From positions 1 through 64,000 of the IMG/VR virus record IMGVR_UViG_3300020198_000002: a stretch of DNA of 64,000 nucleotides; one strand, given 5' to 3'. Of this stretch, positions 1,746 to 54,485 are shown in pieces. The translations under genes were made by a program, and so were the position numbers. Below the pieces are notes generated by a model. It saw only the letters and a program-made list of their open reading frames with translations, searched no databases and was not told the DNA's origin. Within the stretch, counting starts at the first letter, position 1. Every line of letters begins with the position of its first letter. Source of the DNA: a virus.

Positions 1746-1898
1746 ATGATGAAAGTTCTTGGTCGTGCTACCACTTATGTCAACTGGATTGCTACTTTAA
1801 CTCCCGCGCAGATTGATCAACTTTATCGAGAAATCCTGATCGATCATTATCATCAATCTCACACACAAAACATTGACAAATCCACCGACAAAAGGTAG
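1746..1898 (+). CDS. Small hypothetical protein, 50 aa
   Basis: ATG 1746 (or the adjacent ATG 1749) to TAG 1898. The residues ATLTPAQIDQLYREILIDHYHQ form a probable helix rich in His/Asp/Gln. Its 3' end overlaps a strong promoter whose -35 and -10 boxes lie at 1873-1901, so the last coding bases are also promoter sequence. Confidence 0.5.
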   Translation: MMKVLGRATTYVNWIATLTPAQIDQLYREILIDHYHQSHTQNIDKSTDKR

Positions 1899-1901
1899 AC
1901 T
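1873..1901 (+). promoter_or_regulatory. Sigma70-like promoter TTGACA-17-TAGACT
   Basis: TTGACA at 1873-1878, a 17-bp spacer, and TAGACT at 1896-1901. The next ATG is at 1936, leaving a leader of about 28 nt. The consensus -35 and ideal spacing suggest recognition by host RNA polymerase, as expected for early phage genes. Confidence 0.7.
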
Positions 1902-1935
1902 GATTAAATACTACAGTCTTCAACATTGAACGATC

Positions 1936-2109
1936 ATGCTAACTCAAAAACGAACAGTTACACGCTATCGAGTGACCCTAGATTTCACTGTTGATGATAG
2001 CAATGGTAATCCGCCAAGTAGTTGGAACTGGAGAGAACTTTTGCAACTTCGATCCTATGAAAAGGTCAAGGATGTTTATGTCGAAAACCTTGGACAATTC
2101 AACGTGTGA
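1936..2109 (+). CDS. Small hypothetical protein, 57 aa
   Basis: ATG 1936 (context GATCATG) follows the promoter at 1873-1901; stop TGA 2107-2109. The product starts MLTQKRTVTRYRVTLDFTV, a basic beta-rich N-terminus, then SSWNWRELL and a C-terminal helix. This frame is preferred over the longer overlapping frame starting at 1991, because it fits the promoter and the start context. No family is recognised. Confidence 0.6.
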   Translation: MLTQKRTVTRYRVTLDFTVDDSNGNPPSSWNWRELLQLRSYEKVKDVYVENLGQFNV

Positions 2110-2224
2110 TCGTGACTCTCAGAATGCCGATTCGCTGCTCGCGCTTCTAGAAGATTCTGCAGAAGAGTATGAGTACGATGATGCTTCTATAGAGTCTGAA
2201 ATTGAGGACATGTATGATCCCTAA
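2078..2224 (+). CDS. Possible very acidic small protein, 48 aa
   Basis: This frame runs from ATG 2078, inside the previous gene, to TAA 2224. Its non-overlapping part is extremely acidic (LLALLEDSAEEYEYDD, then IESEIEDMYD), a composition unlikely in a random frame. It overlaps the next start by 11 nt. Strongly acidic phage proteins are sometimes DNA mimics, but that is speculation here. The start is uncertain. Confidence 0.4.
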   Translation: MSKTLDNSTCDRDSQNADSLLALLEDSAEEYEYDDASIESEIEDMYDP

Positions 2225-2426
2225 TGTCAAACAACTGTGGAGAGTTTGGTGTAAAGCATTGGGAGAGAAAGCAAGCACTAAGGATCACGAAGCGGATGCG
2301 ATTGCTGCTCTGAGAACTGTGATTCTTTTGACTTACTTTGTGACCAATGTTTTTATTGTAAGTGGAGTGATTCGCCATTGGGATGATGTGAAAAACTCGG
2401 AATCTTGTGAGCAATTAAATGGTTAA
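2214..2426 (+). CDS. Small membrane protein, 70 aa
   Basis: The ATG at 2214 is preferred to an upstream TTG at 2202. After a basic amphipathic N-terminus (VKQLWRVWCKALGEKAS) and an acidic linker there is one clear membrane segment, residues about 36-54 (TVILLTYFVTNVFIVSGVI), then RHWDD. From memory, proteins of this shape recur in T4-like cyanophages; their function is unknown. It overlaps both neighbours, in keeping with tight packing. Confidence 0.6.
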   Translation: MIPNVKQLWRVWCKALGEKASTKDHEADAIAALRTVILLTYFVTNVFIVSGVIRHWDDVKNSESCEQLNG

Positions 2427-2496
2427 AAAAATGTATTTGCGTGCTCTATCTCTTGCGTTGATTTTATGCTTTGAGGGGGATTGTGAGGTCTTCTGA
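2419..2496 (+). CDS. Possible 25-aa hydrophobic peptide
   Basis: ATG 2419 overlaps the stop of the previous gene by 8 nt and the frame ends at 2496. The peptide is a basic start (MVKKMYLR) plus a hydrophobic core (ALSLALILCF) plus a short acidic tail. It resembles a minimal membrane peptide, but at this length it could be chance. Confidence 0.25.
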   Translation: MVKKMYLRALSLALILCFEGDCEVF

Positions 2497-2884
2497 GCGC
2501 CTCTGAGTGTGCTTCTGAAATGCTCTGAGACGTTGTTATCTTAGCGTGCATTGTATCACAAAACTCCGAGAATGTCAAGTCCCCCCATATACTCGGAAAA
2601 CCCCCACATAAGTAACGCAAATACTTCGAGAATCTCAGAGAGTTGCCATAACCTACTCAGAGCATGTAAAATAACTCTGTCAGGGTTCATAAAGGGGGGA
2701 ATGCTTAAAGAACTCAGAGACCCTTAGGACGCTTACCATGAAACTCCGAGAATCTCAGAGTGCTTGTGCCAGTTCGATGAACCGTCCACTGAGCATCGCC
2801 ATGGGGGTGCTGGCAGCCTATATTGAGTACACGAGGGGGAGGGAAAGACCCGACCCCCACCAAACCATTCTCTACTCAAACCTC
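2497..2884 (+). repeat. 388-nt gene-poor stretch with CTCAGAG/CTCTGAG repeats
   Basis: No convincing gene is seen between 2497 and the ATG at 2885. The stretch holds the 18-mer ACTCCGAGAATCTCAGAG at 2743-2760, a 17/18 copy at 2623-2640, and its first half at 2563-2573; these are spaced 120 and 60 bp. Single CTCTGAG and CTCAGAG heptamers, reverse complements of each other, occur several more times. A possible promoter (TTGCCA 2643-2648, 18 bp, TAAAAT 2667-2672) lies inside, and the leader shared with 1065-1086 closes it. Confidence 0.6.
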
Positions 2885-3199
2885 ATGCGTAAGATCGAAC
2901 AGCAAATCATCACCGCAATTCGTGACAACAAAGATCTCAAAGTTGCTAACTCTGAGGTCATCACTTTCACCAACCATTCTGATGTTTACCTGCACGGTAA
3001 CCTGATTGCTCGAATCGGTGAAACTTGGATGGAATTGTTCGATGGTGGTTGGCAGACTGCTACTACCAAGTCCCGTTTGAATGCTATTCTGAGTGCGTTC
3101 GGTATGCCTGGCGAGTATGTTTTCCAGAAGAACTTTCAGTGGTTCGTTCAATACGACGGAGCACCGATTCCGTTCTTCTCAGGTATGCGTCTCGCATGA
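2885..3199 (+). CDS. Conserved cyanophage hypothetical protein, 104 aa
   Basis: The start ATG 2885 is chosen over ATG 2738 because the leader element at 2860-2881 is conserved upstream of another start (1088) and because MRKIEQQIITAI is a natural N-terminus. The protein has a helical N-terminus, a beta middle (ITFTNHSDVYLHGNLIARI), then a Trp/Tyr-rich C-terminus (FQWFVQYDG). From memory, this protein type is common in T4-like cyanophages and has no assigned function. Confidence 0.7.
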   Translation: MRKIEQQIITAIRDNKDLKVANSEVITFTNHSDVYLHGNLIARIGETWMELFDGGWQTATTKSRLNAILSAFGMPGEYVFQKNFQWFVQYDGAPIPFFSGMRLA

Positions 3200-3261
3200 T
3201 CTTTTGTCCTGGAGATGACACTAAACTCTCCGTCATTCACGTCTCTTTCTTTACTCTTCTC

Positions 3262-3408
3262 ATGTCTACTTCTCTGATGATTGCTGCTCTGCGTCGTGGT
3301 CAGACTGGTTCGGAGATTCTCTCGATTCTCGAAGCACTTACCTCTCCCTCTGAGCAGTCTACTGTGCAGTCGTCTGCTACTGCGACTTTCGAACCTGTAG
3401 AGTTCTGA
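3262..3408 (+). CDS. Conserved cyanophage small protein, 48 aa
   Basis: ATG 3262 follows a CT-rich leader (TTTACTCTTCTC) without a Shine-Dalgarno; the frame is open further upstream but overlaps the previous gene. The N-terminal half (LMIAALRRGQTGSEILSIL) is a helix-turn-helix-like pair of helices, and the C-terminal half is Ser/Thr-rich and probably disordered. It resembles a small recurrent cyanophage protein of unknown function. Confidence 0.55.
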   Translation: MSTSLMIAALRRGQTGSEILSILEALTSPSEQSTVQSSATATFEPVEF

Positions 3409-3444
3409 TTCACTCTCACCTCTTCAACACTTCGCTACTACATC

Positions 3445-3639
3445 ATGAACATGATCAACCCCGCAACCGCTAGCAAACTGGATCTGCTGATTGCTGATAC
3501 TCAAGGACAACTCAAGTACACTGTTTTGCCTACTCGCAAAGCACGTCGCTCCGATCTCATCATGAGCAGCACAAAAGGCGTGAGGACTAACACGAACCGC
3601 CAAGGTCAGAGCAGCCCTCAGGCATCACTTGTGCGCTGA
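3445..3639 (+). CDS. Small basic protein, 64 aa
   Basis: ATG 3445 (or 3451) to TGA 3639, with the start in the context CATCATGAACATG. The N-terminus is a short helix (PATASKLDLLIADTQGQL). The rest is Arg/Lys-rich (TRKARRSDL, TNTNRQGQ) and likely disordered, which would suit nucleic-acid contact. No family is recognised. Confidence 0.5.
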   Translation: MNMINPATASKLDLLIADTQGQLKYTVLPTRKARRSDLIMSSTKGVRTNTNRQGQSSPQASLVR

Positions 3640-3665
3640 GTATAGCACTGAGACCCTCGGAGTTC

Positions 3666-3694
3666 TTGACACTTTGGGGGTCTTATGTTAGAAT
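3666..3694 (+). promoter_or_regulatory. Sigma70-like promoter TTGACA-17-TAGAAT
   Basis: TTGACA 3666-3671, a 17-bp spacer, TAGAAT 3689-3694. The first plausible start codon downstream is at 3837, so the transcript would have a leader of about 136 nt. The promoter sits at the boundary between the GC-richer left part and the AT-rich remainder. Confidence 0.7.
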
Positions 3695-3836
3695 GCATTT
3701 GAGCAGTCGAGGCGGCGTTCTTATGTGTAGCGCGGGGGCGCGATGTTGCGGTTATAAAAACGCTAACTACCCTAACCTACAACGAACCAAATTCGAGATC
3801 GATATATACATCGTAATTAAAAATTTTTTTAAGATT
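3695..3836 (+). other. Long GC-rich leader, possible structured RNA
   Basis: After the promoter there are about 140 nt without a convincing gene. The first 80 nt are unusually GC-rich and contain CGCGGGGGCGCG (3731-3742), whose CGCG arms are self-complementary. The last part is AT-rich and ends AAAAATTTTTTT just before the start of the 39-aa basic protein. It could be a structured 5' UTR or a small RNA; no known riboswitch was recognised. Confidence 0.35.
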
Positions 3837-3956
3837 ATGGCAGAGAAAAAACCAAAAAAGAATCCTACATTTGGTAACGGTGATGCACGTAAAGCAACTG
3901 GTCAATGTAGATCTCAGGCACAAAAGAACGCAAGTAATCGTCGTAAGAAAAAATAA
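3837..3956 (+). CDS. Very basic small protein, 39 aa
   Basis: ATG 3837 to TAA at 3956. About a third of the residues are Lys/Arg (MAEKKPKKNP, then SNRRKKK), plus Asn/Gln/Gly. It resembles in style the basic protein at 5383 (a NAR-type C-terminal patch), although the two are not clearly homologous. It is probably nucleic-acid binding or disordered. It is the first gene after the promoter at 3666. Confidence 0.55.
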   Translation: MAEKKPKKNPTFGNGDARKATGQCRSQAQKNASNRRKKK

Positions 3957-3998
3957 TTTTTCCGGCTAAAAAATTTCCTATAAGGTCGATGAAATTGT

Positions 3999-4163
3999 AT
4001 GCTTAAATTTCACGTTTATAAAGAAAATAATCAGGTTTTAGCTCATAGTCTAACACCAGAAGAGTTGGAAGATAAAATCTCAAAAAATGAGATTGATATT
4101 ACGGAACATCAGATACAGCCAGTTGAATTCAATCAGTTTCCGACAGATGAGGTTTCGTATTAA
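3999..4163 (+). CDS. Small hypothetical protein, 54 aa
   Basis: ATG 3999 to TAA 4163. The sequence MLKFHVYKENNQVLAHSL reads as a beta hairpin and is followed by a helix (TPEELEDKISKNEI) and an acidic tail. From here on the codons are AT-rich, unlike the genes before 3.7 kb. No family is recognised, although proteins of this form are common in cyanophage small-gene clusters. Confidence 0.55.
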   Translation: MLKFHVYKENNQVLAHSLTPEELEDKISKNEIDITEHQIQPVEFNQFPTDEVSY

Positions 4164-4208
4164 AAATTGCAATTATATACATAAAGTTGATTATGTCTGA
4201 ATTGTTCC

Positions 4209-4358
4209 ATGTCAATAGAGTTAGATGCATATGAACTTGATCTGTTAATGGAAACTCTTTCATTTAGATTGGAAAATGATGATCAGCTGATTTTGAATTT
4301 AAGACTGAAGGAAGAATTAGAAGACCTATTATTATTGATAGAAGATCAGTATGTATAA
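4209..4358 (+). CDS. Small acidic helical protein, 49 aa
   Basis: ATG 4209 to TAA 4358; an ATG at 4194 leads to a frame that stops early and was not used. The product is almost entirely helical and acidic, with leucine-rich stretches (LDAYELDLLMETLSF, RLKEELEDLLLLIED) suited to a coiled coil or helical hairpin. It overlaps the next gene by 8 nt, suggesting coupled translation. Confidence 0.5.
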   Translation: MSIELDAYELDLLMETLSFRLENDDQLILNLRLKEELEDLLLLIEDQYV

Positions 4359-4512
4359 TGTATACATTGGTGAACATCTCATTATTGAAAATTGCAAGAA
4401 AGAAGATTTAGATCATAAGCTTCTTTTTGTAAAAGAATATTTTGATTGGTATACAGATGATGATCTCCGTACTCATGAGATTAAAATTGTACCAATAAAT
4501 AATTCTGACTGA
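4351..4512 (+). CDS. Small hypothetical protein, 53 aa
   Basis: ATG 4351 lies inside the end of the previous gene; stop TGA 4512. MYNVYIGEHLIIENCKK is followed by an acidic helix (FDWYTDDDLRTHE) and a beta strand (IKIVPI). No family is recognised. The gene ends four bases before the promoter of the glycosyltransferase gene. Confidence 0.5.
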   Translation: MYNVYIGEHLIIENCKKEDLDHKLLFVKEYFDWYTDDDLRTHEIKIVPINNSD

Positions 4513-51546: not shown

Positions 51547-53066
51547 TGCAAAGAAAAGCCAAATCAATAACCATTGTTGGTGGTGGTAGTTCTGCGTGGT
51601 TAACTGCAGCACTTTTAAATAATAGTATTAAAAAATATAGAGAAATCTACGTTATTGATAAAGAAGTAGGCACTCCAGTTGGAGTGGGAGAAGCTACAAT
51701 CCTAAGTTTCAAAAAATTTATGGATGATTGTGGATTCTCTATCCTAGATTGGTTCAGTGAAATATCAGCAACTTTCAAAGGTGGTATTTTATTTGAGAAT
51801 TGGCTTGGAAAAGAAAATCATGTTTGGCATCCATTTGCATTTCCAGATTTCCAATATAATCAAACAACAATGTTGGAACATTGGTCAAATTGTCAAGAAT
51901 TAGATTTTAAAACACATTCTCTTGTCCACTATAATGTTTGCACAAAAGACCAAAAAATAGATCCAGATAACATAGGAATCTATGCATTTCATATTGATGC
52001 TGCACTACTAGTCAAATACATCAAATCAAGAATTGTTGGAAATGGAGTGACATTCATACAATCTGAAGTAAAAGGTATTGTCAGGGACGATAATGGTTAT
52101 GTTACAGAATTGGTTTTAAACAATGGGGAAGTTCATAAGTCAGATTTGTTTGTTGATTGTACTGGATTCAATGGACTATTAAAAGAAAAGAATGATAGAG
52201 TTGATTTAAGTGACAGACTATTCTGTGATACTGCAGTTTGCACTCAAGTTCCATATTTGAATAGAGAGATTGAACTCAAACCATACACTGGATGTGATGC
52301 AGTAGATCATGGATGGATTTGGAAAATTCCAGTAAAGAATAGAATTGGTTCTGGTTTAGTTTTTAATAGATCAGTTACTGATATTGAAGAGGCAAAAGAG
52401 TACTTTGTTAAATATTGGGACAATAGGATTACCAAAGAAGAACTAAAAGTTCTGGATTGGACACCTTTCTACAATAAAAACTTCTGGGAAAAAAATATTG
52501 TTTCCGTTGGACTTGCTGCTGGATTCATTGAACCTTTGGAAAGTACTGGTATTGGACTTGCTTGTGCAGGAGCATGGGGATTATTGAATCGAATTAAAAC
52601 AACAGAATTTGATTCACATGATATCGATTTTTATAATGCAGAACTAAAATGTTTCTTTGAAAACTGCATAGATTTTGTCAATATGCATTATTCAAAATCT
52701 AAGAAAGAAGGTAAATTCTGGGAGTGGGTACATCAAACTTATAAACCAACCGAAAAATTCTCATATCACATTGATGAGATGAAATCGAACACGATTGATA
52801 TTGTTGACGAAGGGAAAGAAATGTTTTCTTTTAACAACTGGATGTGTTGGATGATTCAATTGGGTCATGAAATTTCGCCAAAAATTAGATCAAACTCAGT
52901 TCAAAATTCTGAAGATCTGGTTAAAGATTTCTATTCTAATGAAAAAAATAAGTATGATTACTTACCTACAGCTTCGGTATACAATGACTACTTTAACGCA
53001 CTAACTACACTCACAAAAGAAGTGATAAATCCGTATAAGAACAATGAAAAGACCAAACTTTATTAA
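51546..53066 (+). CDS. Flavin-dependent tryptophan-halogenase-family protein, 506 aa
   Basis: The FAD site GGGSSAWLTAALL is at residues 12-24. Lys78 in ATFKGG corresponds to the catalytic lysine (Lys79 in PrnA). GWIWKIP at 256-262 is the WxWxIP motif that keeps these enzymes from acting as monooxygenases, and EPLEST (329-334) carries the active-site Glu-Ser region. All key residues are present, so activity is expected. Known members use FADH2, O2 and halide to halogenate tryptophan or other indoles and aromatics. The substrate here could be free tryptophan, a protein residue or another aromatic. It needs a flavin reductase, which is not in this window. Confidence 0.9.
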   Translation: MQRKAKSITIVGGGSSAWLTAALLNNSIKKYREIYVIDKEVGTPVGVGEATILSFKKFMDDCGFSILDWFSEISATFKGGILFENWLGKENHVWHPFAFPDFQYNQTTMLEHWSNCQELDFKTHSLVHYNVCTKDQKIDPDNIGIYAFHIDAALLVKYIKSRIVGNGVTFIQSEVKGIVRDDNGYVTELVLNNGEVHKSDLFVDCTGFNGLLKEKNDRVDLSDRLFCDTAVCTQVPYLNREIELKPYTGCDAVDHGWIWKIPVKNRIGSGLVFNRSVTDIEEAKEYFVKYWDNRITKEELKVLDWTPFYNKNFWEKNIVSVGLAAGFIEPLESTGIGLACAGAWGLLNRIKTTEFDSHDIDFYNAELKCFFENCIDFVNMHYSKSKKEGKFWEWVHQTYKPTEKFSYHIDEMKSNTIDIVDEGKEMFSFNNWMCWMIQLGHEISPKIRSNSVQNSEDLVKDFYSNEKNKYDYLPTASVYNDYFNALTTLTKEVINPYKNNEKTKLY

Positions 53067-53769: not shown

Positions 53770-54485
53770 TGAGTTTTACTTCTAGATTTCCATCAATTTG
53801 TATTGATGGATTTTATTCCGAACCAGATGAAATCGTCAAATGGGCTTCATCTTTAGAATATAATAAAGACCCCAAGTCTGGATGGCCTGGTTGGAGAACT
53901 CCGCCACTATCCACTATTGATTATCAATTTGATGATCAATTTAGTAAAAAATTAATGGGAGTATTTTTTGATCTAGATCGAGATTGGGTTAGTTGGGAGA
54001 TACAAACTCATTTCCAAATTATAAAACCATTTTCTGGTGATAAAAATGATCCAAGGAATTGGGGTTGGGTTCATCAGGATTCTGATGGTGTTTATGATTT
54101 GGTAAAAGGATTTGAACCAATGAAATGCGAGTACGCAGGAATTTTATATTTAACTCCAGAGGCAGATTTGGACACTGGTACATCTATTTTTAGATCAAAA
54201 GTAAAAGATCCAGACACAAAACAGCCTTTCAAAAAAGAACTATTTTCTGGAGAAGAAATTGAGTTTGAAAAATATAAAGAAGGTATGATTAATGCTAGAT
54301 CTCAATTTGAAGAGACAATACGTTACTGCAATGTATACAATAGATTAATTGCATTTGAAGCGTCAAATTACCATGCAGCAATGAACTTCAAAATGGATTC
54401 CGATAAGATTAGATTGACTCAAGTATTTTTTATAAAAAATATTAAAACACAGGTCAATCCAATTCTAAGAGGATTTTTAAGATGA
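53769..54485 (+). CDS. Fe(II)/2-oxoglutarate oxygenase-like (2), 238 aa
   Basis: It starts with one base of overlap (TAATG) to the previous gene. WVHQDSDGVYDLV supplies His102 and Asp104, YAGILYLTPEADLDTGTSIF the strand after, and NRLIAFEASNYHAAMNF His202, with Arg215 in DKIRLTQVFF. The fold order is the same as in its neighbours, but the sequence is clearly different (SGWPGWRTPPL), so its substrate is probably different too. It is in the middle of the coupled operon. Confidence 0.72.
   Translation: MSFTSRFPSICIDGFYSEPDEIVKWASSLEYNKDPKSGWPGWRTPPLSTIDYQFDDQFSKKLMGVFFDLDRDWVSWEIQTHFQIIKPFSGDKNDPRNWGWVHQDSDGVYDLVKGFEPMKCEYAGILYLTPEADLDTGTSIFRSKVKDPDTKQPFKKELFSGEEIEFEKYKEGMINARSQFEETIRYCNVYNRLIAFEASNYHAAMNFKMDSDKIRLTQVFFIKNIKTQVNPILRGFLR

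What the first reader, a model, noticed from the sequence alone, without database searches (positions are those of the whole stretch)
2497..2884. Gene-poor stretch with 60-bp phased repeats
ACTCCGAGAATCTCAGAG-type copies begin at 2563 (half), 2623 and 2743, so at multiples of 60 bp. CTCTGAG and its complement CTCAGAG occur about seven times within 260 bp. Arrays of inverted and direct short sites are typical of replication origins or multi-operator control regions; the setting in a packed genome makes it stand out.
Basis: seen in the sequence. Interest (0 to 1): 0.55.

Follow-up and report, generated by a model that had tools for sequence, protein, structure and literature searches.

The report
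Origin-like control region of a cyanophage
The repeats sit in a gene-free control region of a virus of marine cyanobacteria, where two back-to-back promoters of types shared by many such viruses lie beside a conserved AT-rich block that, in relatives, adjoins binding sites of the host's replication starter protein DnaA, so it may be where these viruses start copying their DNA.

Summary
A 458-bp gap (2427-2884) in a T4-like cyanophage carries three copies of the 18-mer and 8 CTCNGAG sites (0.2 expected; no more than 1 per 458 bp outside 1.8-4.2 kb). The 60-bp phasing looks incidental.

What conservation picks out is the promoters, not the repeats. P1 (minus, 2578-2550) and P2 (plus, 2643-2672) are divergent sigma-70-type promoters with conserved sequence downstream of the -10. 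The P2 tag AACTCTGTMAGGGTTCA occurs in at least 120 viral stretches, 118 of 120 with an exact TTGACA at the right distance. P1 reads towards a conserved AT block (2436-2411). In P1 loci elsewhere, cyanobacterial-type DnaA boxes follow P1 at 3.5/kb against 0.06/kb elsewhere. A motif model trained on anonymous P1 loci finds the AT block as top hit beside the DnaA-box cluster in 5 of 6 named Synechococcus phages. S-SCSM2R has the same P2/P1/AT-block layout.

Best reading: a conserved promoter plus unwinding-block module, probably a replication origin, with CTCNGAG sites as likely protein-binding sites. Here the DnaA cluster is missing, apart from one degenerate box. Against it: no GC-skew switch, and no DnaA-box enrichment around the neighbouring gene in 80 relatives. 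Origin activity is inferred, not shown.

The parts
2202..2426 (+). Upstream gene, PHROG_1679 (unknown function); true start uncertain
   Evidence: E 1.7e-28
2427..2884 (.). Noncoding gap holding the control region
2387..2395 (-). Single degenerate DnaA-type box TTTTTCACA in the slot where relatives have DnaA boxes; weak, since one-mismatch boxes are common in this record
2411..2436 (-). AT block ATACATTTTTTTAACCATTTAATTGC, candidate unwinding element
   Evidence: motif models trained without the window: rank 2 and rank 6 of 127,950 positions; same block in S-SCSM2R, S-PM2, DSL-LC02
2535..2549 (-). Conserved sequence just after the P1 -10 (GCACGCTAAGATAAC)
2550..2578 (-). Promoter P1: TTGACA-17-TACAAT
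2563..2580 (+). 18-mer copy 1 (half copy), overlapping the P1 -35 and spacer
2623..2640 (+). 18-mer copy 2, directly upstream of P2
2643..2672 (+). Promoter P2: TTGCCA-18-TAAAAT, with CTCAGAG in the spacer (2656-2662)
2673..2689 (+). Conserved P2 tag AACTCTGTCAGGGTTCA, directly after the -10
2743..2760 (+). 18-mer copy 3, in the presumed P2 leader
2501..2760 (.). Cluster of 8 CTCNGAG sites (starts 2501, 2523, 2564, 2634, 2656, 2713, 2744, 2754), likely protein-binding sites
2885..3199 (+). Kyano_Gp96 gene (PF23790, PHROG_554), first gene downstream of P2
3646..3663 (-). Fourth, diverged 18-mer copy, directly upstream of P3
3666..3694 (+). Promoter P3: TTGACA-17-TAGAAT

Best explanation
This is a cyanophage control region built round two divergent sigma-70-type (host RNA polymerase, presumably early) promoters. 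P2 reads right into the Gp96 gene. P1 reads left, with no gene of its own here, into a conserved AT-rich block that in most of the Synechococcus phages examined is followed by clustered cyanobacterial-type DnaA boxes. Most likely the P1 / AT block / DnaA-box unit is a replication origin: transcription from P1 and binding of host DnaA together open the AT block. CTCNGAG sites in and around P1 and P2 are probably binding sites of an unknown regulator or initiator; in this phage they lie between P1 and the AT block and the DnaA cluster is reduced to one degenerate box. Shown: repeats, promoter sequences, conserved tags, AT block, DnaA boxes in relatives, synteny. Inferred: transcription, protein binding, replication start.
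For: P1 family: 27 unique sites from a pattern covering only the -10 and downstream; 24 of 27 have TTGACA (at most 1 mismatch) at the right distance, control 2 of 27. DnaA boxes TTWTCCACA in the 250 nt after P1: 23 (3.51/kb), reversed control 0, rest of the same loci 0.063/kb; 15 of 27 have at least one (the window has none); AT content peaks at 0.78 about 120-160 nt after P1. AT-block model trained on 19 anonymous P1 loci: rank 1 of 39,950 positions, right strand, beside the DnaA cluster in S-PM2, S-RIM32, S-CREM1, DSL-LC02 and S-SZBM1; rank 12 in Syn19; rank 1 of 6,066 in S-SCSM2R; rank 6 of 127,950 in the window. S-SCSM2R has P2, a P1-like site and AT block in the same order, P1-to-P2 distance 110 vs 112 bp. 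Two or more TTTTCCACA within 60 bp: 6 of 12 records; none in T4, KVP40, HTVC008M, P-SSM4. TTTTCCACA as the cyanobacterial DnaA box: PMC4674748 (passages). Module in 68 phage records, nearly all cyanophages; in Syn19 it lies 1.6 kb before gp25-gp6, in the window about 4 kb before the matching baseplate-wedge genes.
Against: No cumulative GC-skew minimum at the module in the stretches of seven named phages, only local dips; in the window a weak minimum at 3628. Around 80 Gp96 genes of viral contigs DnaA boxes are not enriched (12 in 142 kb near, 40 in 258 kb further off), and P1 with at most 2 mismatches occurs in only 3 of the 80, one being this phage. This phage has no DnaA-box cluster; one-mismatch boxes are common in its record (95 within one mismatch). 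No cluster in P-SSM2, P-RSM1 or P-SSM4. In S-PRM1 and S-8S53 P1 lies upstream of genes that it probably drives. Box order differs between loci: before the AT block in some (L208), after it in S-PM2 and others. T4-like phages carry their own replication machinery and T4 is not known to need DnaA (recalled).
Confidence: 0.45

Rival explanations
1. Only a transcription control region: two divergent early promoters with operator sites (CTCNGAG) for a phage or host regulator; P1 makes a short untranslated or antisense RNA, and the AT block is a leader or terminator feature.
For: Promoters and conserved tags are the best supported parts; P1 lies upstream of sense genes in S-PRM1 and S-8S53; CTCNGAG sites sit in or beside the promoters; no GC-skew switch.
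Against: Does not explain the concentration of DnaA boxes after P1 or the sequence-conserved AT block beside DnaA clusters; no RNA structure (z -1.42 and +1.55).
Confidence: 0.3
2. A DnaA trap or DnaA-controlled switch: the phage boxes titrate host DnaA to stop host replication, or let DnaA tune P1; phage replication starts elsewhere.
For: Host-type boxes in closely spaced sets next to a promoter; DnaA is also known as a transcription regulator (PMC11317965, abstract in the search listing).
Against: A trap needs no conserved AT block, yet one lies beside the boxes; the window phage keeps the block but not the cluster.
Confidence: 0.17
3. Chance or low-complexity repeats with no function.
For: 60-bp phasing not conserved.
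Against: 8 CTCNGAG against 0.2 expected, 0 of 5000 shuffles; P1, P2 and the AT block recur in other records.
Confidence: 0.03

Closest known systems
Bacterial oriC with DnaA boxes and an AT-rich unwinding element (cyanobacterial type, TTTTCCACA)
   Same: Box sequence, clustering and adjoining AT-rich block in relatives
   Different: Lies in lytic T4-like phages, joined to a phage promoter; no dnaN or dnaA in the annotated flanks seen; the window copy has only one degenerate box
Phage T4 oriF/oriG (promoter plus downstream unwinding element, R-loop start; recalled)
   Same: A promoter reading into an unwinding-type block, often with no gene of its own
   Different: Sigma-70-type promoter with no MotA box sought or seen; T4 itself has no DnaA-box cluster
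Predicted single theta origin of cyanophage Syn9 (Weigele et al., cited in PMC2984593, passage)
   Same: Same phage family; Syn9 has a TTTTCCACA pair at 52565/52589
   Different: I could not see where the published prediction lies, nor a DnaA-box description
CfrI antisense RNA of S-PM2 (PMC2984593 passage)
   Same: Conserved noncoding or antisense transcription in cyanophages
   Different: CfrI lies at psbA; the P2-type promoter lies mostly antisense between gp55 and an Sm-like gene

Membership tests
Sigma-70-type promoter | TTGACA and TATAAT-like hexamers 16-18 apart | tested here: met
   P1 11 of 12, P2 10 of 12, P3 11 of 12 matches; families 24 of 27 and 119 of 120
Sigma-70-type promoter | Transcription starts at the site | not testable with these tools
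   no RNA data
DnaA-dependent replication origin | Cluster of DnaA boxes (this window) | tested here: not met
   no TTWTCCACA in the gap, one TTTTTCACA at 2387
DnaA-dependent replication origin | Cluster of DnaA boxes (homologous module in relatives) | tested here: met
   6 of 12 records, Syn9; controls none
DnaA-dependent replication origin | Adjoining AT-rich unwinding element | tested here: met
   AT-rich and conserved, unwinding itself not tested
DnaA-dependent replication origin | GC-skew switch at the site | tested here: not met
   stretches of seven named phages; parts of genomes only
DnaA-dependent replication origin | Replication starts there and DnaA binds | not testable with these tools
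   experiment needed
T4 oriF-type R-loop origin | Promoter transcript persisting as an R-loop at the unwinding element | not testable with these tools
   only the layout fits
Iteron array | Regularly spaced identical repeats bound by an initiator | tested here: inconclusive
   one exact and two imperfect 18-mers, spacings 60 and 120, no 60-bp series seen in S-SCSM2R
Structured RNA leader | Fold more stable than shuffles, or an Rfam match | tested here: not met
   z -1.42 and +1.55; no Rfam match in the window

The most novel reading that the evidence does not exclude
Lytic T4-like cyanophages carry one conserved replication origin, a phage promoter joined to an AT-rich unwinding block and host-type DnaA boxes, so that they recruit the host initiator DnaA, unlike T4. 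In some lineages, such as this phage, the DnaA boxes have been lost and other repeats (here CTCNGAG, elsewhere iterons or inverted repeats) take their place, meaning the initiator has been swapped while promoter and block stayed.
Probability: 0.3. Interest if true: 0.8.

Novelty: new variant of a known kind. Interest (0 to 1): 0.6.

Why it matters
Where T4-like cyanophages, among the commonest viruses in the sea, begin DNA replication is little known; PMC2984593 says only that one origin was predicted in Syn9 and that others are unknown (passage). A sequence-defined module in S-PM2, Syn19, S-CREM1 and others, and a DnaA-box pair in Syn9, give a direct place to test, and would tie phage replication to the host's DnaA. 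The promoter tags also give a way to annotate presumed early transcription units in cyanophages, including a conserved antisense promoter at the late sigma factor gene.

Tried and rejected
Symmetric operator in the P2 tag: AACTCTG/CAGRGTT looks like a dyad and is perfect in the second copy of this phage (76377-76399), but across 80 gp55 loci positions 4-5 vary without matching change on the other arm, and there is a one-base length variant; rejected.

Structured RNA: no Rfam match, folds no better than shuffles. tRNAs: none in the window.

Host origin of the P2 tag: one hit in the prokaryote genome collection, a 4.4-kb contig of a metagenome bin; treated as virus-specific.

Gp96 as marker of the module: rejected, since 80 Gp96 loci show no DnaA-box enrichment. 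Gp96 as a known DNA-binding fold: confident model (pLDDT 92.8) but no solved-structure match at E below 0.001 (sequence search).

GC skew as proof of an origin: failed. RNA-level search of the P1 leader by covariance model: not done. The first 18-mer loci from viral contigs other than the near-identical L024 showed no such cluster and led nowhere.

Print: ten paper searches showed no paper on DnaA boxes in cyanophages nor on the AACTCTGT tag; I judged this from listings and from passages of the papers that I opened. Most subscription papers, including Weigele 2007 and the Syn9 transcriptome paper that I recall, did not turn up.

Full report
WHAT THE WINDOW IS. The window is bases 1-64000 of a 116.6-kb viral record of a T4-like cyanophage: its genes match PHROG families of baseplate wedge proteins, and further along the record uvsW, an Sm-like gene and gp55 follow in the cyanophage order. 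The flagged stretch is a 458-bp noncoding gap between a PHROG_1679 gene (ends 2426) and the Kyano_Gp96 gene (starts 2885; PF23790, E 7e-40).

THE OBSERVATION. The 18-mer copies at 2563, 2623 and 2743 are there. CTCTGAG/CTCAGAG occurs six times, not seven, and CTCCGAG twice. Eight CTCNGAG in the gap compares with 0.20 in dinucleotide shuffles (none of 5000 reached 8), and no 458-bp stretch outside 1800-4200 has more than one. The 14-mer core is exact only once in the whole record and within one mismatch only at the other two copies. The 60-bp spacing is real but I found nothing that makes it meaningful.

PROMOTERS. A consensus scan found two near-perfect promoters in 2000-4400, at 3666 (+) and 2578 (-), and a good one at 2643 (+) (9 sites against 4.9 in shuffles, so the scan alone proves little). 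Conservation settles it. BLAST of the gap alone hit S-PRM1 and S-8S53/55/56 over P1, and S-SCSM2R and S-CREM1 over P2. In S-PRM1 and S-8S53 P1 lies upstream of genes on its strand.

P2 CLASS. Of those 120 sites 119 have TTGACA within one mismatch at 16-18 bases from the -10 (118 exact), 119 have a TANNNT -10, control 0. With up to 3 mismatches the -10-plus-tag pattern gave 17 hits in 10 of 12 records, reversed control 0. Only one hit appeared in the prokaryote genome collection. Of the 120 sites 94 lie between gp55 and the Sm-like gene, pointing antisense into the latter, and 26 elsewhere. The same place holds in S-PM2, Syn19, P-SSM2, S-CREM1 and P-RSM1, and this phage has its own copy there (record 76377-76399). 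In 80 gp55 loci chosen without the tag, 72 score at least 14 of 22 for it. The gene that records call methylamine utilization matches the Pfam Sm_like domain.

P1 CLASS AND THE AT BLOCK. A pattern covering only the P1 -10 and the bases after it hit 33 viral stretches. With S-8S53 and S-8S56 added and duplicates removed these give 27 unique sites, 24 with TTGACA within one mismatch (15 exact), control 2. Many have no sense gene nearby and face a convergent gene. After P1 come cyanobacterial-type DnaA boxes in 15 of 27 (23 boxes in 6.6 kb against 18 in 287 kb elsewhere in the same loci; reversed control 0 and 9), and AT content peaks at 0.78 some 120-160 nt after P1. Other loci have tandem or inverted repeats there instead. 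A motif model of the AT block trained without the window ranks the window's own block second of 127,950 positions. A stricter model, trained on 19 anonymous loci only, ranks it sixth, and finds the block as first hit beside the DnaA cluster in 5 of 6 named phages.

DnaA BOXES IN NAMED PHAGES. TTTTCCACA is described as the DnaA box of most cyanobacteria (PMC4674748, passages). Two or more within 60 bp occur in S-PM2, Syn19, S-RIM32, S-CREM1, S-SZBM1 and DSL-LC02 (6 of 12 records) and in Syn9. Syn1, S-CAM1 and DSL-LC03 also have them, but I had picked those by BLAST with the S-PM2 module. There is none in T4, KVP40, HTVC008M or P-SSM4, nor in P-SSM2, P-RSM1, S-SCSM2R, S-8S53, S-PRM1 or this phage. 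Of 121 unique viral double-box sites, 15 have the AT motif upstream (mirrored control 0) and 7 the P1 core (control 1); most double-box sites are thus of other kinds. BLAST with the S-PM2 module matches 68 phage records, some only in part, and in Syn19 the module lies just before gp25-gp6.

SAME LAYOUT ELSEWHERE. S-SCSM2R, an isolated phage, has P2 (54058, +), a P1-like site (53928, -; 3 mismatches) and the AT block (53840, -) in the window's order and nearly its distances, with CTCTGAG at 53991 and in the P2 spacer at 54047. It too lacks the DnaA cluster.

RESULTS AGAINST. No GC-skew minimum at the module in stretches of seven named phages. DnaA boxes are not enriched round 80 Gp96 genes; five of those loci have 10 or fewer bases upstream of the gene and so could not show P1. 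The single box at 2387 is weak, as boxes within one mismatch number 95 in the record against 53 for the reversed control. P1 lies before genes in some phages, so it is a promoter first.

HOW IT LIKELY WORKS. Host RNA polymerase uses P1 and P2 (both sigma-70-like; PMC2984593, passage, notes that cyanophage early genes are thought to use unmodified host polymerase). P2 transcribes Gp96. P1 transcribes towards the AT block. In relatives host DnaA would bind beside the block and, helped by transcription, open it. In this phage CTCNGAG sites lie between P1 and the block and flank P2; a regulator or a different initiator may bind there. The promoter sequences and conservation are shown; transcription, binding, opening and replication are inference.

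Noticed in passing
record 76377-76399 (-), L040 4578-4600: A conserved antisense promoter with the AACTCTGT tag lies between gp55 and an Sm-like gene in 94 of 120 tagged viral sites; it may make an antisense or small RNA next to a phage Sm-like (Hfq-like) protein gene.
   Followed up: partly
L040 4171-4587 and homologues: The gene annotated 'methylamine utilization' (T4-GC 139) in cyanophages matches the Pfam Sm_like domain and weakly PDB 3by7; the annotation looks wrong.
   Followed up: partly
gp55 loci L227-L306: Many gp55-locus promoters have an inverted repeat TTGACAA-n-TTGTCAA joining the -35 to the spacer.
   Followed up: no
S-PM2 NC_006820 17414-19333: tRNA genes annotated there, two of them over the DnaA/AT module, are not found by ARAGORN; the annotation appears misplaced.
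   Followed up: partly
window 2885-3199: Gp96 protein: confident predicted fold (pLDDT 92.8) with no solved-structure match at E below 0.001; possibly a new fold.
   Followed up: partly
L042 about 2976-2994 and 3561-3580; L050 about 1695-1712: A CTTAAAGAGTCAAAGGA-like sequence recurs shortly before start codons in DSL-LC02, and in a related form in S-SCSM2R.
   Followed up: no
L211, L212, L210, L213, L216 downstream of P1: Other P1 loci carry tandem iteron-like repeats (L211, L212) or TTCTCAA/TTGAGAA inverted repeats (L210, L213, L216) in the DnaA-box slot.
   Followed up: no
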